Virus record (IMG/VR): IMGVR_UViG_3300036859_001052 | Location: 1-32,822 of that record | DNA length: 32,822 nt | From: a virus | Strand: one strand, 5' to 3' | Shown: piece by piece, positions 34 to 32,822 of the stretch | Position numbering within the stretch: the first letter of the stretch is position 1 | Layout of the letters: the number at the start of each line of letters is the position of its first letter | Made by a program: the position numbers and the translations under genes | Notes under the pieces: generated by a model | Database searches by the model: none | Told to the model about the DNA's origin: nothing | What the model saw: only the letters and a program-made list of their open reading frames with translations

Positions 34-588
34 ATGAAATACAAAAAACAAACCAACGGAATAAATACCGGAGTTAAAGAGATTGTTCGTGATGTTGAAG
101 ACGTACTTGATAAGGTAAAATACCGTTCTGAATTTCGGCAATTCAACAGGAAAAATAATGTAAAAGTTGCCCATCTTTACGCATTATATTTATCCGGAAA
201 ATCTTTAAGATATATTGCCGAAGTAATGTATCAGGGACGATTTACGCATCAAGCGCTTGCTGATGTTTTTAGAGTCAGAGGATATAAACTCCGCACCAAG
301 AAACTAAAGCCGGCAAGAATATATAAAGGCGTTGAATACAGACCGGCACATGGAGGTTATCGTTCAAGAGTCGGAGGAAAAACCGTATATCTGCACAAAC
401 TTATATGGGAAGAACATAACGGAAAAATCCCACCGGATCACTACATTATTTTCAAAGACAGTAATCACGAAAACATTGTTATTGAAAATTTGATTTGCAT
501 ATTAAGTATTGATGCGAAAAAACAGTACAACTACAGTAATCAATTCGGTTACAAAAGATTTGAAGGAAGAGGAGCGTTTGGAATATGA
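34..588 (+). CDS. HTH plus HNH-like homing endonuclease-type protein
   Basis: A 184-residue protein. The middle (about residues 45-90) looks like a helix-turn-helix, with SGKSLRYIAEVMY followed by a second helix around THQALADVFRVRGYKL. The C-terminal third resembles the HNH family found in phages: a YLHKLIWEEHNGKIPPDH segment followed by FKDSNHENIVIENL. The usual His-His pair before the Asp is replaced by Ile-Phe, so nuclease activity is uncertain, although phage HNH subfamilies with a similar substitution exist. Such proteins often act as homing endonucleases or packaging-associated nucleases. Its stop overlaps the start of the ATPase gene by ATGA, so the two are probably translated together. 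The window starts 33 bases upstream, so the promoter is not seen. Confidence 0.6.
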   Translation: MKYKKQTNGINTGVKEIVRDVEDVLDKVKYRSEFRQFNRKNNVKVAHLYALYLSGKSLRYIAEVMYQGRFTHQALADVFRVRGYKLRTKKLKPARIYKGVEYRPAHGGYRSRVGGKTVYLHKLIWEEHNGKIPPDHYIIFKDSNHENIVIENLICILSIDAKKQYNYSNQFGYKRFEGRGAFGI

Positions 589-2285
589 AAATAAACATAA
601 ATAAAAACACATCAATAGACCTTTCAACACTCATAGATACTCGCCTACTCGTCCAGGCAAACAGCGGTGGTGGTAAATCGTGGCTCTTGCGCCGGATTCT
701 TGAACAATCTCATGGAAAAACACAGCAGATAATTCTTGATCTTGAAGGAGAATTTTCTACTCTTCGTGAAAAGTATGACTATATCCTTGCCGGTAAAAAT
801 GGGGATATTGCTGTGGATATAAAAACGTCAGGACTTCTTGCAAGAAAACTTCTTGAGTTAAATGTTTCAGCAATTATTGATCTATATGAATTAAATCACT
901 ATGACCGGAAAGAATTTGTAAAACAATTTTTAACTTCAATGGTAAACGCACCAAAAGATTTGTGGCATCCTTGCCTTGTCGTTATTGATGAAGCGCATGT
1001 ATTTTGTCCGGAAAAAGGACAATCTGTAGCAGCAGAAGCAGTCATAGACCTTGCCACAAGAGGAAGAAAAAGAGGATATTGTGCAATTCTAGCTACACAA
1101 AGGCTTTCGAAGCTTCATAAAGACGCAGCTGCAGAGTGTAATAACAAACTAATAGGCAGAACCGGTCTTGATGTTGACATGAAACGCGCCAGTGAAGAAC
1201 TTGGGTTTACAACAAAAGAACAATATCTGTCCCTTAGACAACTTAAATCGGGAGAGTTTTTTGCTTTTGGTGCTGCAATCTCAAGGGAAGTAATAAAACT
1301 AGAAGTAGGAGAAGTTGAAACAACTCATCCTTCAGTTGGATCAAGGGTGCTGGTAAGCAAGCCTATTCCTCCTACTGAGAAAATAAAGTCTGTTCTTGGG
1401 AAACTGACTGATCTTCCACAGGAAGCAAAGGAAGAAGCAAGTACAATTGGAGAACTTACAAATCAAGTAACAACATTAAAAAGAGAACTTTTCCTTGCAA
1501 AAAAACAACAACCTATTCCTTCTCAAGAACAAATACAAAAGTCAGTTGATATTGCTTTAAATAGACAAAAGATTGAATTTCAAAACGAAATTAAAAGATA
1601 TTTAACTTCTCAGCATAAACTTGAGTCTTTTATTAGATCAATTATAGAAAAAGGAGCAAGTGTTCTTGAACTTCCACAAATGGATTTAAGTAAATCAAAT
1701 GGGATGGCGACTGGTAAGCCTACAGAATCCGTTCGTGTTGCCGAGCAACCGATTCAGCGGGATAGAAGATTGCCTCAATTGGGAGAAACTAACCAGATCC
1801 AGCCCGACTTTTCAAACGGAAATAAACCAATTACAGGTGGCGCTTTAAGAATGTTACAAGTGCTTTCTTCTCGCTATCCAATGATATTTACAAAATCACA
1901 ACTTGCAACTCTTTCAAAACTTTCTCCAAGAAGCGGAACTTACGGAACATATCTTTCGCTTCTTAAAACAAATAATTGTATTGAACAAAACGGAGATCAA
2001 ATCTCAATTACTCAGGAAGGATTAGAAATTGCCGGTGAGCAACCAAAAGATCAGCAAGATACTATCGCCATGTGGAGAAACAATCTGACAGGCGGAGCGC
2101 AAAGAATGTTTGATTGTCTGGTTGAAAATCATCCACAAGTACTAACAAAAGAAGAATTAGGAGAACGAACAGGGTTAGTTTCAAATAGTGGAACATTTGG
2201 CACTTATTTATCAATGTTAAGAAGCAACGGTCTTATTGAGGTATCAGGCGGAAAGATTAAAGCGTCTGAGAATTTGTATTTATGA
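585..2285 (+). CDS. HerA/FtsK-like (DUF87) P-loop ATPase with C-terminal winged-helix repeats
   Basis: A 566-residue protein. Walker A is at residues 25-32 (ANSGGGKS) and Walker B at 131-138 (LVVIDEAH). A sensor-like ATQR follows at 170-173 and an Arg in NNKLIGR near 190. This order fits the HerA/DUF87 group of hexameric DNA-pumping ATPases. A Gln/Lys-rich, probably coiled-coil stretch spans roughly 285-360. The C-terminus has two similar ~65-residue modules, each beginning with TGGA.RM and containing SGT(Y/F)GTYLS.L, which look like tandem winged-helix DNA-binding domains. Phages often carry such ATPases in early regions; the substrate here is unknown. The start overlaps the preceding stop (ATGA), and the stop overlaps the next small gene in the same way. 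Confidence 0.8.
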   Translation: MKININKNTSIDLSTLIDTRLLVQANSGGGKSWLLRRILEQSHGKTQQIILDLEGEFSTLREKYDYILAGKNGDIAVDIKTSGLLARKLLELNVSAIIDLYELNHYDRKEFVKQFLTSMVNAPKDLWHPCLVVIDEAHVFCPEKGQSVAAEAVIDLATRGRKRGYCAILATQRLSKLHKDAAAECNNKLIGRTGLDVDMKRASEELGFTTKEQYLSLRQLKSGEFFAFGAAISREVIKLEVGEVETTHPSVGSRVLVSKPIPPTEKIKSVLGKLTDLPQEAKEEASTIGELTNQVTTLKRELFLAKKQQPIPSQEQIQKSVDIALNRQKIEFQNEIKRYLTSQHKLESFIRSIIEKGASVLELPQMDLSKSNGMATGKPTESVRVAEQPIQRDRRLPQLGETNQIQPDFSNGNKPITGGALRMLQVLSSRYPMIFTKSQLATLSKLSPRSGTYGTYLSLLKTNNCIEQNGDQISITQEGLEIAGEQPKDQQDTIAMWRNNLTGGAQRMFDCLVENHPQVLTKEELGERTGLVSNSGTFGTYLSMLRSNGLIEVSGGKIKASENLYL

Positions 2286-2530: not shown

Positions 2531-3598
2531 ATGATAGATTTTATAAATTTACAAAAAATGATTGATGAGAAATATATCTCAGTGCAAAAACATCCAAGTG
2601 CTGATTTATATATTTACAATTACACCCAAAAAGCTCAGTTTGATCGTGTTTGGAATAACGAAACCTTGCAGTGTCGAGGATTAATTATGGATTCAAGAAA
2701 TAATATTGTTGCACGTCCTTTTCCTAAGTTTTTTAACTTGCAGGAAGCCATAGATCAAGGAGAACAACTGCCAGCAGAAGATTTTGTCGTTACTGAAAAA
2801 ATGGATGGTTCTTTAGGGATCCTTTATTTTATTTCGGGATTTCCTCATCTTGCTACTCGTGGATCTTTTATTTCGGATCAAGCAATTCGCGGAACAAAAA
2901 TATTGCAAAGCAAGTATTTCGAATCCAGATTTAATCCGCATTATACTTACCTCTTTGAAATCATTTACCCAGAAAATAGAATTGTTGTTGACTATAAAGG
3001 ACTTGAAGACCTGGTGCTGCTTGCTGTTAGAGATACGCAAACCGGAAAAGAGCCGCCTTACGATTTTATATGTAAATTTGCAGAAAATCATGGATTAAAA
3101 CATGTTCAAAAATATGATGCCATCAGAGACTTTTCTAAAATTCAGGCAGAAGAAAATAAAGAAGGATATGTTATCAATTTCCCGACATCGGAAAAAAGGT
3201 ACAAAATTAAATTTGATGAGTATGTCAGGCTTCATAGGCTTGTTACAGGAGTTAATGCGCGAACGATTTGGGATTTGCTTCGCAGTAATCAAGCATTTGA
3301 TGAGCTTATGGATCGAGTGCCGGACGAATTTTACTCGTGGGTCAAGAAAACGAAAAAGAATCTTGAAGAAGAATTTAACCTGGTTGAAGCTTTGGCCTTG
3401 AAGCAATGGGAAATTATCAAAACACTTCCTGACAGAAAAACTCAAGCGCTTACATTGCTAAACAATACAAAAGAAGAGCAGAAAAAGATTATTCCTATTG
3501 TTTTCGCATTATTAGACAAAAAACCGTATGCAGATATTATTTGGAAAATGTTAAAACCAAGCGCAGAAAAACCATTTAAGGAGGATGTTGATGCCTAA
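2531..3598 (+). CDS. T4 Rnl1-type RNA ligase
   Basis: A 355-residue nucleotidyltransferase that seals 5'-phosphate and 3'-OH RNA ends via a lysyl-AMP intermediate. Motif I is KMDGSLG at residues 90-96, with K90 the predicted adenylated lysine. An upstream CRGLIMD (48-54) is typical of the Rnl1 group. YLFEIIYPENRIVVDY (140-155) matches motif III, LVLLAVRD (161-168) IIIa, EGYVINF (211-217) IV and KIKFDEY (225-231) V. The size fits Rnl1 proteins (about 370 residues). It overlaps the kinase-phosphatase gene by 8 bases, as expected for a repair pair that fixes cleaved tRNA or other RNA. Confidence 0.9.
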   Translation: MIDFINLQKMIDEKYISVQKHPSADLYIYNYTQKAQFDRVWNNETLQCRGLIMDSRNNIVARPFPKFFNLQEAIDQGEQLPAEDFVVTEKMDGSLGILYFISGFPHLATRGSFISDQAIRGTKILQSKYFESRFNPHYTYLFEIIYPENRIVVDYKGLEDLVLLAVRDTQTGKEPPYDFICKFAENHGLKHVQKYDAIRDFSKIQAEENKEGYVINFPTSEKRYKIKFDEYVRLHRLVTGVNARTIWDLLRSNQAFDELMDRVPDEFYSWVKKTKKNLEEEFNLVEALALKQWEIIKTLPDRKTQALTLLNNTKEEQKKIIPIVFALLDKKPYADIIWKMLKPSAEKPFKEDVDA

Positions 3599-4436
3599 AA
3601 TAATTTTAACCAAGGGATTGCCAGGAAGCGGAAAAACTACTTGGGCAAAAGAATATCAACGCGAGAATCCAAATACAGTTTTGGTAAATAAAGATGACCT
3701 TCGTGGTATGTTGCATCAAAATGTATTTTCCAAAGGGCGTGAGAGTTTTGTACTGGAAATCAGAAATGCAATTATTATCCGGACACTGGAGGAAGTACAC
3801 GATATCATCGTGCATGATACAAATTTAGCTCCAAAACATCAAGCGCAAATGGAGGAAATCGCAAAGCTGCCTCAATTCAAAGGAAAAGTTGAGATTGAAA
3901 TAAAAGATTTTACAGATGTACCACTTGAGGTGTGTATTAAACAAGATCTTAAAAGATATTCCTCTGTGGGATCAAAAGTAATAAAGGATATGTATAAGCA
4001 ATTTCTTGCCCCAAAACCTCCTGTTATAGAGTACGATTCCAAACTGCCTGATGCAATTATTTGTGATCTTGATGGAACCCTTGCTTTATTTGGAAACAAA
4101 AATCCCTATGAAAGAGATTTTGAGAACGATACGCTGAATGATGCTGTTGCTGATCTTTTATATCGCATAGATCGTTGTAATTTTGATGGCATAGGTAATT
4201 TTACAAGAATAATATTTGTATCGGGAAGAAAAGAAGATTTTAGAGGAGTTACAAGAAAGTGGTTAGACGATAAGGGGTTTAATATTTATCCATTATTTAT
4301 GCGAGGCTTCAATGATTCTAGGAAAGATTTTATTGTTAAACAAGAAATTTACGAAACGGAAATAAAAGATAAATACAATGTCAAGTTTGTTCTCGATGAT
4401 CGTAACCAAGTTGTTGAATTATGGCGTAGTCTTTGA
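3591..4436 (+). CDS. Polynucleotide 5'-kinase / 3'-phosphatase (T4 Pnkp-like)
   Basis: A 281-residue two-domain enzyme. The N-terminal kinase has P-loop GLPGSGKTT at residues 9-17. The C-terminal HAD phosphatase has DLDGT at 159-163 (nucleophile D159, acid D161), SGRKEDF at 211-217 and DD at 269-270. Domain order and size match T4 Pnkp (301 residues), which turns 2',3'-cyclic-P/5'-OH ends into 3'-OH/5'-P ends for Rnl1. I use ATG 3591 because the AAGGAGG at 3578-3584 lies 6 bases before it; the ATG at 3585 touches the Shine-Dalgarno. Partner of the overlapping RNA ligase gene. Confidence 0.9.
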   Translation: MPKIILTKGLPGSGKTTWAKEYQRENPNTVLVNKDDLRGMLHQNVFSKGRESFVLEIRNAIIIRTLEEVHDIIVHDTNLAPKHQAQMEEIAKLPQFKGKVEIEIKDFTDVPLEVCIKQDLKRYSSVGSKVIKDMYKQFLAPKPPVIEYDSKLPDAIICDLDGTLALFGNKNPYERDFENDTLNDAVADLLYRIDRCNFDGIGNFTRIIFVSGRKEDFRGVTRKWLDDKGFNIYPLFMRGFNDSRKDFIVKQEIYETEIKDKYNVKFVLDDRNQVVELWRSL

Positions 4437-5543: not shown

Positions 5544-5687
5544 ATGACGAAGATAGTTGTTTGTTCAGATTGCAGCGGAACAGGGATTATAGATGATGAA
5601 ATCTGCGAAGAGTGTGGTGGCGCTGGTGATTTTTCAGTCACAGAAAGAAAAGATTATGGCAAAAGAGAAGTTAAAAAAAGTAGTTAA
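5544..5687 (+). CDS. DnaJ-type zinc-finger mini-protein
   Basis: A 47-residue frame beginning 2 bases after the preceding stop. It contains two CxxCxGxG knuckles, CSDCSGTG and CEECGGAG, spaced as in the zinc-finger region of DnaJ, then a basic tail. The paired Cys motifs make it a convincing gene despite its size. Its 3' end overlaps the start of the small terminase gene by 32 bases in another frame. Function unknown; similar stand-alone knuckles are common in phages and are presumed to bind partner proteins or nucleic acid. Confidence 0.7.
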   Translation: MTKIVVCSDCSGTGIIDDEICEECGGAGDFSVTERKDYGKREVKKSS

Positions 5688-6108
5688 AAATTTGGTGGCA
5701 CAGAAAATGCAAAATGGTGGCAAGAAGAAGCCGAGTGTTGCAAAAGCCATGAGAGTCGCAGGGTACTCTAAAGCTTATTCTCGAAACCCACAAAAGCTAA
5801 AAAAGAATAAAACATGGAATGAATTAATGGAGGAGCATTTGCCAGACGATTTTCTCGCTGAAAAGCATAAGTCACTATTAAATGCAAAAACAATTGTAAA
5901 AGTAACAATTAAAGGAAAAAGAACAGTAATAACAGAGCATGAAGATACAGACGCATTAGGAAGAGGACTAGATTTGGCTTATAAGATTAAAGGGAAGTTT
6001 AAGCCTATTCAGGTAGATATTCGATCATTTGTCGGTTGGACACCGGCAGAATTGGAGGCGTATGCAGCAAATGGCAGTGTCCCCGAACGATTTAGAGCTA
6101 AGAGCTAA
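5656..6108 (+). CDS. Small terminase subunit-like protein
   Basis: A 150-residue basic protein immediately upstream of the large terminase, which is the standard position for the DNA-recognising small subunit. The segment KPSVAKAMRVAGYSKAYSRN (about residues 27-46) looks like the helix-turn-helix of small terminases (AA.AGYS..YA). A conserved-looking C-terminal tail, SFVGWTPAELEAYA, follows. I choose ATG 5656 (MAKEKLKK). The frame is open further upstream, but that stretch codes for the zinc-knuckle protein in another frame. It overlaps the large-subunit gene by about 47 bases. Confidence 0.7.
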   Translation: MAKEKLKKVVKNLVAQKMQNGGKKKPSVAKAMRVAGYSKAYSRNPQKLKKNKTWNELMEEHLPDDFLAEKHKSLLNAKTIVKVTIKGKRTVITEHEDTDALGRGLDLAYKIKGKFKPIQVDIRSFVGWTPAELEAYAANGSVPERFRAKS

Positions 6109-6706
6109 AGCGAGGGCAGAACTTGAAAGACAACAAAAAGAGGAAAGATATAAGTTTTATATACCAAATGGGAAAGTGGAGCGTTTTATCGATCTTATTG
6201 GCTCCGGTGAAGTATTTGTCGGTCTATTTTCCGCTGCAAATGGTGTCGGTAAAACAGCATGTGGTGTAAATATTGTCGCACACATTCTTTTTGATTGTAG
6301 CTGTAGTTGGTTTGATAAGGCTTTATTTAAAAATTTTCCATATTTGAAGCGCGGGCGTATTGTCTCTGATCCAACAACTATTTCACAAAAGATAGTGCCG
6401 GAACTGCACATGTGGCTTCCGCAAGGAAGATATACAGCAGCAAGAGGAGACAAACATTTTGATAGTAAATGGTCAACTGATACTGGTTTTAAAATTGATT
6501 TGATGACTTATGAGCAAGATACAAAAGAATTTGAGTCAGTAGATCTTGGCTGGGCGTGGTTTGATGAGCCGCCGCCTGAACATATTTATAAGGCGACAGT
6601 TTCACGTATGCGAAGAGGGGGGATCATTTTTATTACCGAGACACCTTTGACAGGCAGTGCTTGGCTTTATGACCGATTTATAACGAGTCCAGATAGAATA
6701 ATATGA
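6062..6706 (+). CDS. Large terminase, ATPase half (split gene)
   Basis: A 214-residue protein carrying only the packaging ATPase domain. Walker A is SAANGVGKT at residues 57-65, Walker B WAWFDE at 164-169, and the coupling motif ITETPLTGS is at 191-199. The frame then ends with DRFITSPDRII and a true stop. Full-length large terminases continue into an RNase H-fold nuclease; here that half is a separate gene beginning at 7025. ATG 6062 or 6071 could be the start: GGAGG at 6054-6058 is close to the first and 12 bases from the second. The stop overlaps the next small gene (ATGA). Confidence 0.85.
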   Translation: MQQMAVSPNDLELRAKARAELERQQKEERYKFYIPNGKVERFIDLIGSGEVFVGLFSAANGVGKTACGVNIVAHILFDCSCSWFDKALFKNFPYLKRGRIVSDPTTISQKIVPELHMWLPQGRYTAARGDKHFDSKWSTDTGFKIDLMTYEQDTKEFESVDLGWAWFDEPPPEHIYKATVSRMRRGGIIFITETPLTGSAWLYDRFITSPDRII

Positions 6707-6864
6707 GTGAAAAAGATTTACTTAAAGAACAAAATAAACTCTTGAGGAGAGAGATCGCATTACTAAAACTAGCTTTATGCAGATGTCCTAGGAATGGTGA
6801 TTGGGTAATTGTAGGTATATCAATACTTTGTCCGGTTCATAATAAAAATCATAAAATCATTTGA
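6703..6864 (+). CDS. Tiny coiled-coil / Cys-rich protein inserted between terminase halves
   Basis: A 53-residue frame starting in an ATGA overlap with the ATPase-half stop. Residues 4-24 are a probable helix (LLKEQNKLLRREIALLKLAL). Next come CRCPRNGDW and a later LCPVHN, so three Cys and a His could hold a metal. No family recognised. The tight overlap argues that it is a real gene in the packaging operon, not an intron remnant. Confidence 0.55.
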   Translation: MSEKDLLKEQNKLLRREIALLKLALCRCPRNGDWVIVGISILCPVHNKNHKII

Positions 6865-6865
6865 T

Positions 6866-7024
6866 ATGGAAAAACTTAATTCTTATTGTTGCAATGCTCC
6901 TATTCAGAGAATGAGCAATGGGGATTATCTATGTACTGTATGCGGAGCAAATGTTAGTCCTTATGTTTATTCTCAATATAAATTTTCGGAGACAAAAAAT
7001 AATAATGAAAGGTTGGTTAATTAA
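6866..7024 (+). CDS. Tiny zinc-ribbon protein inserted between terminase halves
   Basis: A 52-residue frame beginning 1 base after the previous stop and ending directly before the nuclease-half ATG. It has YCCNAPIQR and later YLCTVCGANV, a minimal zinc-ribbon arrangement (two Cys, then CxxC). The rest is polar and Asn-rich. Very small zinc-ribbon proteins of this type are frequent in phage genomes. A role as a bridge between the two terminase proteins is only a guess from position. Confidence 0.6.
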   Translation: MEKLNSYCCNAPIQRMSNGDYLCTVCGANVSPYVYSQYKFSETKNNNERLVN

Positions 7025-7978
7025 ATGTTGCAAGATAATGATCTCATCAAGGTTTTGGATAATCCGCTTCAACCAGCGGCAGTAGCTCCTATTTCTTTTG
7101 CTCCTTCTATTCCTGAAATGTCAGACGAAGAGATATACAAGCGCAAGATCGGTGTTGTTGAAGCCGAGATCGAAGACAACTGTATAGAGCATGGTATCAG
7201 AGGAATACTCAAACACGGAGACATTATGAATATGATCTCTGAATATAGCGAAGAAGACAAACAAGCTCGTGTGCATGGTAGATTTCAGCATTTGACTGGT
7301 CTTGTACTTAAAAAGATGTCGCGACAAATTCATGTCATCAGACCATTTCAAATCAGACCCCAGGACTTTTGTGTGATTGAACTTCTTGACTGTCATCCAA
7401 GAAATCCTGATGCTGTGATGTGGGTTGCTTTTAACGAAAAAGGAGAAAAGTATGTCGTTGATGAGCTGTATGAAAACTTTGCAAATGTTGACGATATGGA
7501 GTATAAAATCAAACGAAAAGCCGATCAATACAGAGTCCTTCAGCGTAGGGCTGATCCGTCAGCATGGATTGAAGATCAACACACACGAGTAAGCCTTGCA
7601 AAGATGCTTGCAGAGCGGGGACTCCATTACATTCCAGCTTCAAAAGAAAGAACACAGGGCATCACTCTTATTAATTACGCTCTTGATTACGAAATCAAAA
7701 ATATTGAAGGACAAGAATTGTTGGTGAAGAAACCAATGCTTTATTTCTTTGAGTCAGCAGTGCGTACTATCTGGGAAGCTGAGCATTGGCAATATAATGA
7801 GTGGACTGGTAAAGCTGCTGAGAAACGCAATCAAAGCGAAAAGCCAATGGACAAAGATGATCATCAGATGGAAAATCTTGGACGTGCGCTTCTTGATGAG
7901 GTTCCTTTTGTGCAGATGCCAACCAAACAAAACAATCAGGTACTAGGAACAATGCCTACAATAGATCCATTTGATTAA
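7025..7978 (+). CDS. Large terminase, nuclease half (split gene)
   Basis: A 317-residue protein corresponding to the C-terminal part of large terminases. After a ~45-residue N-terminal extension comes EDNCIEHGIRGIL.HGDI and EYSEEDKQARVHGRFQHL, typical of the region just after the ATPase domain. The RNase H-fold nuclease follows, with LLDCHPRNPDAVMWVAF carrying a metal-binding Asp. RRADPSAW and DKDDHQMENLGRALL near the end supply further acidic residues. The gene starts immediately after the stop of the zinc-ribbon gene. Both halves keep their motifs, so they probably work together in trans to cut and pump concatemeric DNA. Confidence 0.8.
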   Translation: MLQDNDLIKVLDNPLQPAAVAPISFAPSIPEMSDEEIYKRKIGVVEAEIEDNCIEHGIRGILKHGDIMNMISEYSEEDKQARVHGRFQHLTGLVLKKMSRQIHVIRPFQIRPQDFCVIELLDCHPRNPDAVMWVAFNEKGEKYVVDELYENFANVDDMEYKIKRKADQYRVLQRRADPSAWIEDQHTRVSLAKMLAERGLHYIPASKERTQGITLINYALDYEIKNIEGQELLVKKPMLYFFESAVRTIWEAEHWQYNEWTGKAAEKRNQSEKPMDKDDHQMENLGRALLDEVPFVQMPTKQNNQVLGTMPTIDPFD

Positions 7979-8598: not shown

Positions 8599-8671
8599 GC
8601 CTTTGTAGCTCAGTTGGCAGAGCAGCTCACTTGTAACGAGCAGGTCAGGGGATCGTGCCCTCTCAAAGGCT
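8599..8671 (+). tRNA. tRNA-Thr, anticodon UGU
   Basis: A 73-base cloverleaf. The acceptor stem GCCTTTG/CAAAGGC is perfect (7 bp), and the D-stem is GCTC/GAGC with a GG-containing loop. The anticodon stem is GCTCA/CGAGC (one mismatch at its loop end) with loop CTTGTAA, giving anticodon UGU. The variable loop is AGGTC and the T-stem AGGGG/CCTCT (one G-U). The T-loop is ATCGTGC, so T54 and A58 are swapped to A54 and T58, which is unusual. The CCA end is not encoded. ACA is the favoured Thr codon in the Thr-rich capsid genes, so the tRNA may support late translation. Confidence 0.88.
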
Positions 8672-9928: not shown

Positions 9929-11893
9929 ATGCCAGAAGAATTAGATAAATCATTTGAAAAAGATTTAAAAAAACATGAGGACTCAACCTATGATAGTCTC
10001 ATCAAGCAGATTGATGCAGAATATAATCTATCATGGCTTCATCAGTACGATAAAATCCAACAAACCCTTTCCCGAATGAAGTTGTATAACAATCAGCGTA
10101 AAGATCCAAATACTGTAGGTGATCCCCTCTTATTTACTGTCCATCAGACAGTGCTTGCTTCGCTTTATGATGACAGACTTATGGCAACGTGGGAAGGTCA
10201 TGAGGAAGGCGATGAAGAAACCGCTGAGAATTTGAACGGTCTTACACGATTTGATTATGACAAGATGGAGAAAGACGTTCTCGATTATATGTGGGATTGG
10301 GACACGCTATTTTTCAGTCGAGGACTTGTATCGCTCATGGAGTTTGATAGAAGTAAGGAGTATATGTGTCCGGTTCCTGAAATCTTTGACCCAGGAACAT
10401 TTTTGCGAGATCCGCGGGCGATCTCTGTCAATGGTGACATGAGAAGAAGAGGCGGTATGCGTTTTGGCGGAAGAGAATTGTGGTTTAATAAAGTGTTGAT
10501 GACAGATAAAAACGGTTATTTTAATACTTCATACCTCCGCACTGATAATGAAATCAAAGACCTTATTTATAAAGCACAAGAAGCACGAGACAGCGCGCAA
10601 AACCTCCAGGCAATTTTCAGCAAAAACATGGAGGCTAATCTTGGTGATAACGCGACAGTTGGAGGATTACAATGGTTTACTCATTGGAAGGGTAAAAGAG
10701 TTGTAGTCGAGTTAGTAAAGAAAAGGACAAGAATTGTTAAATATACCGAACTTGATGATCAAACGAGATTCCCTATTATTGACAGACCAATGTATCCGCA
10801 TTCTCATAGTTGGGACAATACCTCGATCCCCGATCTTACTGAAGATAAACAGCGTCAACGATCTGTAGCCATCAACTTGGGATTACAGGCGATGAAATCA
10901 GATATGTACCCTATGTATATTTATGATGAGGATCGAATCAAAAATAAAGGCGATCTTCTGAAATTTGGATTTAATAAATTTGTCGGTATTCAAAATAACG
11001 AGGGGAAAGATATACGAACAGCTGTCGCGCCGCTTAATAAAGCAAACCCAAGTCTTCAAATGGCAAACTTTATTCTTGAGACTCTTGATGCTTCTGCGCA
11101 ACGGGCAACAGCAACACCAGATATGCAGCAAGGACAGATTGAGAATCAAAGAAGAACGCTTGGAGAATTAAACCTTGTTGCTTCAAAAGTAGATACACGT
11201 TTTTCACTTAGCGCAAAAGTTTTTGGATGGAGCGAAAGAGCATTTTGGCGAATGTGGTATGGACTCTACAAAGAGCATTTCCATGCAGATATTGATAAAA
11301 AAATCATCCGTATTAAAGGATCACTTGGCAACAAATGGCGACCATTGCTTCGAGACAATATTGTTGCAAAAACTTATGATCCTGATGTTTTTATCGACAG
11401 TCAGACAGTTTCTGAGGCAAAGATGGTCAGAGAGCGTATTTTATTCCAGGCATTTGGTCAGGCGCTTTTCAGCGATCCTGACGCAAATAGACGCTTTTAT
11501 CTTAAAAAATTGGCAAAACTTAACGGACTGAGTAAAGATGACATCATGCTTTTATTGCCACCAACTGTTGACGAACTTCTGGCTGAAGATGAAAATAATA
11601 AACTCAACAAAAATCAGCTGGTGCAGGTAAGTCCGAACGATAAACATATGATACATCTTGAGATACACGCAAAAGCTGCTGAAACCGCAGCGAAAGCAGC
11701 ACATATCGCAGCGCATAAATACGCGATGAAAGTACAAAGAGATCAGCCTGAGCTATTTCCAGAACTGCAAGCACAACAGTTGCAACAGCAAGATAGGAAA
11801 ACGCCTTCAATTACTCCAAATTTGGGGAATTTGGGCGGACTGCTTAATGCGCCTGCCGGAAATATGCAGGGCGGTAATCCTTTAGCAAACTAA
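9929..11893 (+). CDS. Portal protein
   Basis: A 654-residue protein in the portal position, between terminase and scaffold/capsid. The N-terminal 130 residues contain YDKIQQTLSRMKLYNNQRKDP and a DPLLFTVHQTVLASLYDD segment. A wing/stem-like middle follows (VPEIFDPGTFLRDPRAISVNG, then EVVELV-type strands). Near residues 385-420 is the helix-rich ANFILETLDASAQRATATPDMQQGQ, resembling the region before the tunnel loop of podovirus-type portals. The Gln/Asn-rich C-terminus (LQAQQLQQQ) is typical of a barrel tail. It forms the dodecameric DNA channel at one capsid vertex. Headed by leader element copy 1. Confidence 0.8.
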   Translation: MPEELDKSFEKDLKKHEDSTYDSLIKQIDAEYNLSWLHQYDKIQQTLSRMKLYNNQRKDPNTVGDPLLFTVHQTVLASLYDDRLMATWEGHEEGDEETAENLNGLTRFDYDKMEKDVLDYMWDWDTLFFSRGLVSLMEFDRSKEYMCPVPEIFDPGTFLRDPRAISVNGDMRRRGGMRFGGRELWFNKVLMTDKNGYFNTSYLRTDNEIKDLIYKAQEARDSAQNLQAIFSKNMEANLGDNATVGGLQWFTHWKGKRVVVELVKKRTRIVKYTELDDQTRFPIIDRPMYPHSHSWDNTSIPDLTEDKQRQRSVAINLGLQAMKSDMYPMYIYDEDRIKNKGDLLKFGFNKFVGIQNNEGKDIRTAVAPLNKANPSLQMANFILETLDASAQRATATPDMQQGQIENQRRTLGELNLVASKVDTRFSLSAKVFGWSERAFWRMWYGLYKEHFHADIDKKIIRIKGSLGNKWRPLLRDNIVAKTYDPDVFIDSQTVSEAKMVRERILFQAFGQALFSDPDANRRFYLKKLAKLNGLSKDDIMLLLPPTVDELLAEDENNKLNKNQLVQVSPNDKHMIHLEIHAKAAETAAKAAHIAAHKYAMKVQRDQPELFPELQAQQLQQQDRKTPSITPNLGNLGGLLNAPAGNMQGGNPLAN

Positions 11894-13078: not shown

Positions 13079-14041
13079 ATGGCAGACACAACAAAAACAC
13101 AAATTCCAAATGAGGTTAATAATTTCTACAACCGTAATCTTTTAGTACGCGCAGTTGCTTACTTCGTTCACACAAATTGGGCACAGGTTAAAGATATCCC
13201 AGCAAATGGTGGAACAGACACTATTAAATTCCGAAGATATGGAAACCTTACAGCTGCAACAACAGCACTTACAGAAGGTGTTACTCCTTCAGGTTCTCAG
13301 CTTTCAGTAACAGACATTACAGCACAGGTTTTGCAATATGGTGATTATGTTACTCTTACTGATTTAGTTGATTTTACAACTTATGATCCAATCCTTACAG
13401 AAACATCTGAAATTCTTGGTGATCAAATGGGAGATACTCTTGATCAGCTTACACGAGATGTTATGGTTGCCGGAACTACAGTACAATATGCTTCTACAGC
13501 AGCAGCGAGAGGAGACATTACAGCAGCAATGAAATTAACAGCTGCGGAAGTCCGTGAAGCTGTAAGAACATTGCAGGTCGCAAAGGCTCAGCCAATTATG
13601 CGCAGAGTTGATCCAGAAGATGCTTACAACACTGTTCCGCTTGGAGCATGCTACATAGGTATTATCTCACCTAATACATTGTTTGATCTTAAATCCGATA
13701 CAGCTTTTGTTCCTGTTCAAAAATATCCACGGCAAACAGACGTCATGGAACATGAAGAGGGTGCTGTTGATAATGTCCGATTCGTCATGACACAAAATGC
13801 AAAGGTATACACCGGTGGTGGATCAGGCGGAGTTGATGTTCACGGAACACTTATTATCGCACGGGACTACTATGGTATTACCAGAATCGCCGGACATGCA
13901 GTTGAAAATATCGTTAAACCACTTGGTGCAGGAGAAGATCCGTTGAACCAAAGAGCCACATCAGGTTGGAAAGCAACATTTATCGCAAAAAGACTTAACG
14001 AGGCATTCGCAACACGAATAGAGCATGGAGTGACAGCCTAA
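13079..14041 (+). CDS. Major capsid protein, N4-gp56 family type
   Basis: A 320-residue protein with the pattern of the N4-gp56 major capsid family (HK97 fold). The N-arm is MADTTKTQIPNEVNNFYNRN. Next come DTIKFRRYGNL, the phrase LTEGVTPSGSQLSVTDITA, LQYGDYVTLTDLVDF and DPILTETSEILGDQMGDTLD. The C-terminal domain carries DYYGITRIAG and WKATFIAKRLNEAFATRIEHG. Length is at the short end for the family. It self-assembles into the procapsid with the upstream scaffold-like protein. It is preceded by two tandem leader elements, the only doubled copy in the window. Thr codons are mostly ACA, matching the phage tRNA. Confidence 0.9.
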   Translation: MADTTKTQIPNEVNNFYNRNLLVRAVAYFVHTNWAQVKDIPANGGTDTIKFRRYGNLTAATTALTEGVTPSGSQLSVTDITAQVLQYGDYVTLTDLVDFTTYDPILTETSEILGDQMGDTLDQLTRDVMVAGTTVQYASTAAARGDITAAMKLTAAEVREAVRTLQVAKAQPIMRRVDPEDAYNTVPLGACYIGIISPNTLFDLKSDTAFVPVQKYPRQTDVMEHEEGAVDNVRFVMTQNAKVYTGGGSGGVDVHGTLIIARDYYGITRIAGHAVENIVKPLGAGEDPLNQRATSGWKATFIAKRLNEAFATRIEHGVTA

Positions 14042-31775: not shown

Positions 31776-32822
31776 TTAAAATACGATACGGTTTTTTAAC
31801 CTCACCTTGAAGCTGTACCCTTTTCCATTAAGTGGTGTAAGCTCAGGAGGACTAAAATCCCCATCATGTTCTAGTTCTTCTCTTATTTTTTCAAGCCAGC
31901 TTCTTAATCTATAAATTTTTTGCAAGGGTGTTAACGATTTTGCAAACATTGGATGATTTTTGGCAGCTTCAAACAAATCTTCATCATTAAAATCTGTATA
32001 ACCCATTGTTGTTTTTATATCTTTATGTCCAACAAGTTTACTTACTTCTGGTAGCGGAGTTTTACTGCGAAGATGTGCCATTATGTATGAGGCGCGAAGA
32101 TCGTGAATACGGGGAGCTTTGGTAATGCCGGCAAGTCTTAATCTTTTGTGCCAATCCTCCTCCATGCTAGTTGCTGATATTTTATTTCCTGCTGCTGAAG
32201 TAAAAGCCAGTTCTTCAGGGTTTTTCTTCTCAAGATGTATTTGCAGTTTAATAATTACGGAATTAGGAATCGGTACTTTTCTCCCTATCTTATTTTTAAC
32301 CTCAAAACCTGGCTTTCTCTCAATCTTTATATACCCATCATCTCCAAGGACTATATCGCATTTGCGAAGCGTCAAGCATTCATCAAGTCTGCATCCCGTT
32401 GCGGCAATCACCCACAAAGCAAGATTTCGATTTATATCAATTTCAGAGCCTTCCATTCCGAATCGTTTAGTATATGTAACTCTGGAAAATAAAATTTTTT
32501 CAATTTCATTTTGGCTTAAAATAACAGGTATTCTTTTTTCTTTAGGAAAGTAGCTTACTTTCTTAAGCAGATGTAGGTCTTTATTAAAATCACGCTCGTA
32601 AATATCAATAAGAGTAATAACGCGAATGTGGGTGTTGATGGAAACATTTACTAGTCCTTTTTCACGAAGATACTGGACATATTCTCCTACTGAATCTTGA
32701 GTTAATTTTCTTCGTCCCAACCATTTAAACAATAAATCATACCTAATTCTAGTATGCTTCATACTATTTTTAGATAGGTTTCGTTTTGTCACGCACCATG
32801 ATAGAAAGTCTTTCCTATCCAT
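31776..32822 (-). CDS. Tyrosine recombinase / phage integrase
   Basis: A 348-residue integrase whose ATG is the last codon of the window on the minus strand; a longer N-terminus cannot be excluded. The N-terminal core-binding (SAM-like) domain covers about residues 1-85. In the catalytic domain I see R145 (ATGCRLDECL), K182 in the beta-hairpin (NKIGRKVPIP), H240 and R243 (HDLRASY), H266 (LVGHKDIKTT) and nucleophile Y275 (MGYTD). All catalytic residues are present. It implies site-specific integration. Its attachment site is not identifiable here. Confidence 0.88.
   Translation of the reverse strand: MDRKDFLSWCVTKRNLSKNSMKHTRIRYDLLFKWLGRRKLTQDSVGEYVQYLREKGLVNVSINTHIRVITLIDIYERDFNKDLHLLKKVSYFPKEKRIPVILSQNEIEKILFSRVTYTKRFGMEGSEIDINRNLALWVIAATGCRLDECLTLRKCDIVLGDDGYIKIERKPGFEVKNKIGRKVPIPNSVIIKLQIHLEKKNPEELAFTSAAGNKISATSMEEDWHKRLRLAGITKAPRIHDLRASYIMAHLRSKTPLPEVSKLVGHKDIKTTMGYTDFNDEDLFEAAKNHPMFAKSLTPLQKIYRLRSWLEKIREELEHDGDFSPPELTPLNGKGYSFKVRLKNRIVF

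What the first reader, a model, noticed from the sequence alone, without database searches (positions are those of the whole stretch)
6062..7978. Large terminase split into two genes by two tiny Cys-rich genes
The ATPase half (Walker A, Walker B, coupling motif) and nuclease half are separate proteins with their own starts and stops. Between them two small Cys-rich genes fit exactly, with an ATGA overlap, a 1-base gap and a direct stop-start junction. There is no spare sequence for an intron, so this is a stable gene arrangement rather than a frameshift. The small Cys-rich proteins might link the halves.
Basis: partly seen in the sequence, partly recalled or inferred. Interest (0 to 1): 0.6.

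Follow-up and report, generated by a model that had tools for sequence, protein, structure and literature searches.

The report
Phage DNA-packaging motor gene naturally split
In this virus, and in at least fifteen related ones, the gene for the DNA-packaging motor is cut into two separate genes at the same loop, so the motor is probably assembled from two pieces; the tiny genes lying between the pieces here are later arrivals, not a link.

Summary
At 6062-7978 the only large terminase (TerL) of this virus is two genes: an ATPase core (6062-6706) and a second protein (7025-7978), with two 52-53-codon Cys-containing ORFs packed between.

A survey of 131 distinct relatives found 16 TerL genes split at this same loop; 114 are fused and one has an unrelated stop. 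Nine of the 16 have no gene in between (e.g. TAATG, TAATATG junctions). The closest relative, L133 (69% identical), is split with a 20-nt gap and no small genes. Other splits hold an HNH homing endonuclease, an MT-A70 methylase or unrelated small ORFs. A single clade of all splits is rejected (AU p = 7.7e-6).

All 16 keep the ATPase and nuclease motifs. Window and L133 show strong purifying selection in both pieces. No intron, split intein or possible frameshift joins the window's pieces.

The cut falls inside the ATPase domain, between ASCE core and lid, so the second protein is lid + linker + nuclease.

Best reading: a "genes-in-pieces" TerL whose two subunits assemble without a covalent bond (assembly inferred, not shown). 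The small genes are late cargo. I found no report of a TerL split this way in the open papers searched.

The parts
5656..6108 (+). small terminase-like gene (TerS position, 150 aa), overlaps the ATPase gene by 47 nt
   Evidence: Position; 42% identical ORF in the same place in L133, with the match starting at this Met. No Pfam/PHROG family hit at a meaningful E-value.
6062..6706 (+). TerL piece 1: ASCE ATPase core (214 aa)
   Evidence: A6 profile E 7.7e-101; 72% identical to L133 piece 1; Walker A 6233-6256, DE 6563-6568, coupling TPLTGSA 6641-6661
6703..6864 (+). small ORF 1 (53 aa, Leu-rich helix then CRCP...CPVH), inserted later
   Evidence: absent from L133; no homologue found
6866..7024 (+). 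small ORF 2 (52 aa, zinc-ribbon-like CC...CxxCG), inserted later
   Evidence: absent from L133; no credible homologue found
7025..7978 (+). TerL piece 2 (317 aa): N-terminal extension + lid + linker + RNase H-fold nuclease
   Evidence: A6 profile E 2.3e-116; model pLDDT 81, best PDB match D6E TerL E 1.9e-10; nuclease motifs LDCHPR ~7385, VVDE ~7460, DKDDH 7850-7864
7043..7072 (+). conserved peptide LI[KR]VLDNPLQ at the N-terminus of piece 2, possible docking segment
   Evidence: shared with L133 in an otherwise diverged 42-59 aa extension; pN 0.12 vs pS 0.52 over 11 codons
7151..7258 (+). lid subdomain of the ATPase (approximate), here on the nuclease polypeptide
   Evidence: mapped from L003 model residues ~220-255; P74-26 ATPase-domain structures cover model 25-266

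Best explanation
This is a large terminase in pieces. An ancestral one-chain TerL gene was broken in the variable loop after the coupling-motif helix. It now encodes two proteins: the ASCE ATPase core, and a lid-linker-nuclease protein with its own start. Both are made from one operon by stop-start coupled translation (inferred) and assemble non-covalently, the lid closing on the core around ATP, into a working packaging motor (inferred). Breakage happened more than once at this loop. Homing-endonuclease insertion, seen in two relatives, is one plausible route. The open junction then accepts other genes; the two Cys-containing ORFs of the window are such late cargo.
For: SHOWN: 16 of 131 distinct loci are split at the same loop; nine of them have no gene between the pieces and the others have differing inserts. 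The nearest relative, L133, is split with a 20-nt gap, shares gene order TerS-core-lid/nuclease-portal-major head protein, and shares the peptide LI.VLDNPLQ at the N-terminus of piece 2. Its sister L003 is fused. pN/pS is 0.20/0.81 for piece 1 and 0.23/0.83 for piece 2, window against L133. All 16 keep Walker A (L022's is interrupted by an in-frame intein), DE, TPL.GSA and the nuclease motifs. The two pieces are co-inherited: distance correlation 0.70 in split, 0.66 in fused. One clade of all splits is rejected, AU p = 7.7e-6, and starred branches force at least 5 changes of state. L016 and L022 carry 78%-identical HNH/NUMOD3 endonucleases exactly at the site. Structure places the cut between core and lid. 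INFERRED: non-covalent assembly and function, as shown for other split phage enzymes (Aeh1 NrdA; gene 43A/43B; PMC2988022).
Against: No biochemistry. All close relatives are metagenomic contigs without an isolate. In T4, cutting gp17 at the linker kept both activities but abolished DNA translocation (PMC3012670, PMC9958956), although that cut lies downstream of the lid, not upstream as here. The count of fissions cannot be separated from re-fusions on an unrooted count, and within each of the two main groups a single origin is not rejected (p = 0.21 and 0.13).
Confidence: 0.8

Rival explanations
1. The insert is (part of) a self-splicing intron, so that the mRNA becomes continuous.
For: terL genes of ICP1 and IBB_35 do have introns (PMC10448857, PMC3322345); inserts here are 0.45-0.85 kb in several loci.
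Against: No Rfam intron in the window or in 15 split loci. The insert is filled by ORFs. L133 and eight more splits have no gene and at most about 84 nt between the pieces. The first codons of piece 2 are conserved as protein between window and L133, which an intron would not need.
Confidence: 0.04
2. The two pieces are joined by a split intein (like GOS-TerL/AceL-TerL) and trans-spliced.
For: Split inteins are known in TerL genes (PMC11766414); in-frame inteins sit about 10 residues downstream in L129 and L275.
Against: Piece 1 ends four residues after FITSP with no intein N-fragment. The extension of piece 2 has no HN+Cys/Ser/Thr junction, and Pfam finds no intein domain in either piece.
Confidence: 0.02
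3. The small Cys-rich proteins are structural linkers or assembly factors of the two-piece motor.
For: They are exactly packed between the pieces and probably co-translated; L064 and L142 also have a tiny Cys-containing ORF in the gap.
Against: Absent from L133 and from all nine insert-free splits; no relatives in the 13 related records searched; another small zinc-motif ORF lies outside the gap at 5544-5687.
Confidence: 0.05
4. The gene is decaying (pseudogene or assembly error) and the phage packages with something else.
For: Metagenomic assembly; record possibly incomplete (32.8 kb).
Against: Purifying selection on both pieces, catalytic motifs intact, same site in 15 other contigs, two related splits assembled twice in different samples, no second TerL.
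Confidence: 0.04
5. Translational frameshift or bypass fuses the pieces (as in T4 gene 60).
For: In L133, L058 and L160 the two frames overlap in the stop-to-stop sense.
Against: In the window, L012, L016, L019, L022, L064, L093 and L142 the frames do not overlap at all, and the window's gap holds whole ORFs.
Confidence: 0.03

Closest known systems
Aeh1 nrdA/mobE 'genes-in-pieces' ribonucleotide reductase; T4 topoisomerase split by mobA; split gene 43A/43B (PMC2988022)
   Same: One enzyme gene broken into two ORFs that keep all catalytic residues, sometimes with an HNH endonuclease in the gap (here in L016 and L022)
   Different: The enzyme is the packaging motor; the cut is repeated at one loop in several lineages; most cases lack the endonuclease; activity of the reassembled enzyme has not been tested
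GOS-TerL / AceL-TerL split-intein terminases (PMC11766414)
   Same: TerL gene in two pieces in environmental phages
   Different: Those carry intein fragments that ligate the chains; none is present here
Intron- or intein-interrupted terL of ICP1 (PMC10448857), IBB_35 (PMC3322345), Mic1 (PMC7156551)
   Same: TerL as a target of mobile elements
   Different: Splicing restores one chain there; here nothing for splicing is found
D6E / P74-26 large terminases (solved structures)
   Same: Fold of the fused relative and of piece 2
   Different: Single chain
T4 gp17 cut experimentally at the linker (PMC3012670)
   Same: Two-piece terminase
   Different: Artificial cut after the lid; translocation lost

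Membership tests
Large terminase (TerL) homologues | Walker A, Walker B/catalytic Glu and coupling motif | tested here: met
   AANGVGKT, WAWFDEPP, TPLTGSA; conserved in all 16 splits (intein-interrupted in L022)
Large terminase (TerL) homologues | RNase H-fold nuclease with acidic triad | tested here: met
   Model of piece 2 matches D6E, P22, G20c and T4 TerL nucleases; D, E, DKDDH conserved
Large terminase (TerL) homologues | Gene context TerS-TerL-portal-major head protein | tested here: met
   SU10-type portal 9929-11893, major head protein 13079-14041, same order in L133; the TerS gene itself is assigned by position only
Canonical one-chain TerL | ATPase and nuclease on one polypeptide | tested here: not met
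   Two ORFs with stops and an insert; frames do not overlap
Genes-in-pieces by homing-endonuclease insertion | Intact homologues exist and the pieces are complementary | tested here: met
   L003, MW202743 and others fused; junction collinear
Genes-in-pieces by homing-endonuclease insertion | Endonuclease gene between the pieces | tested here: not met
   Window: two small ORFs without family match. Met in relatives L016 and L022 (HNH)
Genes-in-pieces by homing-endonuclease insertion | Pieces assemble into an active enzyme | not testable with these tools
   Needs co-purification and a packaging assay
Split-intein TerL (GOS-TerL, AceL-TerL) | Intein fragments at the cut ends | tested here: not met
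   No intein domain in either piece; piece 1 ends four residues after FITSP
Intron-interrupted terL | Group I/II intron between exons | tested here: not met
   No Rfam intron at gathering threshold, nor in the window gap at E up to 10

The most novel reading that the evidence does not exclude
A natural class of viral packaging motors in which the ATP-burning core and the lid-nuclease 'transmission and wheel' are separately made subunits held together non-covalently. It evolved repeatedly by fission in one loop, so covalent continuity between core and lid is not needed for force generation.
Probability: 0.55. Interest if true: 0.75.

Novelty: new variant of a known kind. Interest (0 to 1): 0.6.

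Why it matters
How ATP hydrolysis in the core is passed through the lid to DNA movement is an open question for terminase motors. Current models invoke core-lid motion (PMC5727402, PMC9958956, PMC9410871), and a T4 terminase cut at the linker loses translocation. These phages carry a cut one subdomain earlier, apparently made several times, and keep the genes under selection. That gives ready-made two-piece motors in which core and lid-nuclease can be expressed, mixed, mutated or swapped separately. It also marks the post-coupling loop of TerL as a fission and insertion site, and warns that phage annotation and TerL-based taxonomy will miss or split such terminases.

Tried and rejected
Rfam at relaxed threshold in 6600-7250 gave only a chance snoRNA match. 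Sequence searches for the small ORFs in phages, viral contigs and 13 related records found nothing credible (L277 is a spurious 22-residue match). A scan of genome contigs found no relatives. A profile search of solved structures by sequence found nothing, so fold comparison was used. Promoter/terminator scan around the locus was at chance level. The idea that inteins sit exactly at the cut was rejected: L129/L275 inteins are at the conserved Cys about 10 residues downstream. A single ancestral fission of all splits was rejected. L130, counted as split by the script, has an in-frame stop inside the ATPase and a near-identical intact relative (L125), so it was excluded. Rhizobium phage hits with two annotated features were an overlapping upstream gene, not a split. 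A PHROG label 'terminase large subunit' on ORF 585-2285 was traced to a HerA/FtsK-type ATPase. The Dassa 2009 'fractured genes' paper could not be read here.

Full report
THE OBSERVATION. The window is a virus record of 32,822 bases. The upstream start is best put at ATG 6062, which has GGAGG in front. Single-chain family profiles barely see the pieces, but relatives settle the identity. In the phage record MW202743 one 'large terminase' gene matches residues 44-220 of the upstream ORF and, 6 nt further on, residues 43-300 of the downstream ORF. The window holds no other TerL.

HOW COMMON. Scans of viral contigs with the two pieces, classified by script, gave 131 distinct loci with both parts. 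114 are fused, 16 are split at the same loop, and one (L130) has an unrelated in-frame stop. The queries included split sequences, so 16/131 is not a prevalence. The 16 are window, L002, L012, L016, L019, L022, L054, L058, L064, L086, L093, L133, L142, L145, L160 and L179. The junction carries no gene in nine: TAATG in L002; TAATATG in L054, L086, L160 and L179; 20 nt in L133; about 36 nt in L145; about 84 nt without an ORF in L012; an overlap in L058. The other inserts are an HNH/NUMOD3 endonuclease (L016, L022; 78% identical to each other), an MT-A70 methylase (L019, E 7e-29) and small ORFs (window, L064, L093, L142). Two of the splits were assembled independently in a second sample with 100% and 99.96% identity (L054/L055, L145/L146).

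ORDER OF EVENTS FOR THIS WINDOW. The closest relative is L133: 72% and 67% identical for the two pieces, with the same gene order from the TerS-position gene to the major head protein. It is split with only 20 nt between the stop of piece 1 and the ATG of piece 2, and it lacks the two small ORFs. Its piece 2 begins MDDQSLIRVLDNPLQ..., the window's MLQDNDLIKVLDNPLQ...: a conserved start in an otherwise diverged extension, with pN 0.12 against pS 0.52 over 11 codons. So the most economical order is that the fission, and the separate start of piece 2, are older than the small-gene insertion. The sister of this pair, L003, is fused (bootstrap/SH-aLRT 99/94). The small ORFs have no detectable relatives in the collections tried.

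RECURRENCE. On a 48-row tree the split label needs 10 changes, at least 5 forced by well-supported branches. Holding all 16 splits together is rejected (AU p = 7.7e-6), while holding together the nine around the window (p = 0.21) or the six of the second group (p = 0.13) is not. With L179 among fused rows, the conservative count is three separate changes. Fission and re-fusion cannot be told apart by this count. L086 against its fused relative L014 shows a simple route: 34 extra nt in the linker region, with TAATATG at the junction. The linker is of variable length in fused relatives, which fits a permissive loop. The HNH pair at the site makes endonuclease-driven breakage, with later loss or replacement of the endonuclease, a plausible but unproven cause.

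FUNCTION RETAINED. All 16 keep Walker A (in L022 interrupted by an in-frame intein), the DE pair, TPL.GSA and the nuclease motifs D.H.R, [DN]E and DKDDH. Between window and L133, pN/pS is 0.20/0.81 in piece 1 and 0.23/0.83 in piece 2 (synonymous sites are saturated, so these are raw proportions). The pieces are co-inherited as tightly in split as in fused loci (matrix correlation 0.70 and 0.66). This argues against decay.

WHERE THE CUT IS. The model of fused L003 (pLDDT 85.9) matches D6E TerL over its whole length (Z 21.6, though rmsd 15.9, presumably because domain orientation differs). The ATPase-domain-only structures of P74-26 cover model residues 25-266 (Z 19.8, rmsd 2.9), and nuclease-only structures begin at 264-269. 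The cut corresponds to model residues about 210-218, a loop between a helix and the strand 218-223. It therefore lies inside the ATPase domain, between ASCE core and lid (inference from the model; subdomain terms as in PMC5727402). The window's piece 2 alone folds confidently as a nuclease (blocks of 86-98 for most of residues 91-300), while its lid region drops to about 51-81. In the fused model most of the corresponding lid residues (about 221-240) reach 90-91. This is compatible with the lid needing the core as partner.

MECHANISM. Shown: two genes, fission shared with relatives, selection on both, cargo absent from the nearest relative. Inferred: co-translation by stop-start coupling, non-covalent core/lid assembly, a working motor. 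Precedents for functional split phage enzymes are Aeh1 NrdA and gene 43A/43B (PMC2988022). T4 gp17 cut at the linker keeps both activities but not translocation (PMC3012670, PMC9958956). The natural cut differs in keeping lid, linker and nuclease on one chain and severing core from lid. A role of LI.VLDNPLQ in docking is a guess.

ALTERNATIVES. No intron family is found in the window or in the 15 other split loci. Split-intein fragments, as in GOS-TerL/AceL-TerL (PMC11766414), are absent. The frames of the window's pieces do not overlap, which excludes a simple frameshift. The idea that the Cys-rich proteins link the pieces fails on L133 and eight other insert-free splits.

NOVELTY. Terminases interrupted by introns, inteins or split inteins are known (PMC10448857, PMC3322345, PMC7156551, PMC11766414). 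In the open library I found no TerL encoded as two unspliced genes, nor one split before the lid; the library lacks most subscription papers. I rate it a new variant of a known kind (genes in pieces).

Noticed in passing
L129 4610-5600; L275 2290-3350: In-frame LAGLIDADG inteins in fused TerL relatives at the conserved Cys of IEDN^CIEHG, about 10 residues downstream of the fission loop.
   Followed up: partly
L022 1752-3572: A split TerL that also carries an in-frame intein inside Walker A (GIGK^C...STGN^T) besides the HNH gene in the gap.
   Followed up: partly
window 585-2285: 566-aa HerA/DUF87-type ATPase with a winged-helix C-terminal part, next to an HNH gene (34-588); the PHROG label 'terminase large subunit' appears to be misleading.
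   Followed up: partly
window 6233-6256 and relatives: P-loop is AANGVGKT: where D6E has the P-loop arginine (three before the Lys), nearly all of this family have Gly, in fused and split members alike. The aligned position is inferred from spacing.
   Followed up: partly
window 8599-8671: tRNA gene shortly after the terminase block; L133 has one and L054 three at similar places.
   Followed up: no
window 5544-5687: A further small zinc-motif ORF (DnaJ-like CxxCxGxG) just upstream of the TerS-position gene, outside the terminase gap.
   Followed up: no
window 2531-4436: RNA ligase and polynucleotide kinase genes side by side, possible tRNA-repair pair.
   Followed up: no
window 31776-32822 (-): Tyrosine-type integrase running off the right end, so the phage may be temperate.
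   Followed up: no
L012 1859-1942: Stretch of about 84 nt without an ORF between the two TerL pieces with a hairpin-like repeat (TGTTTTAGTG...CAAAAAACA); possible processing or regulatory site, not folded.
   Followed up: no
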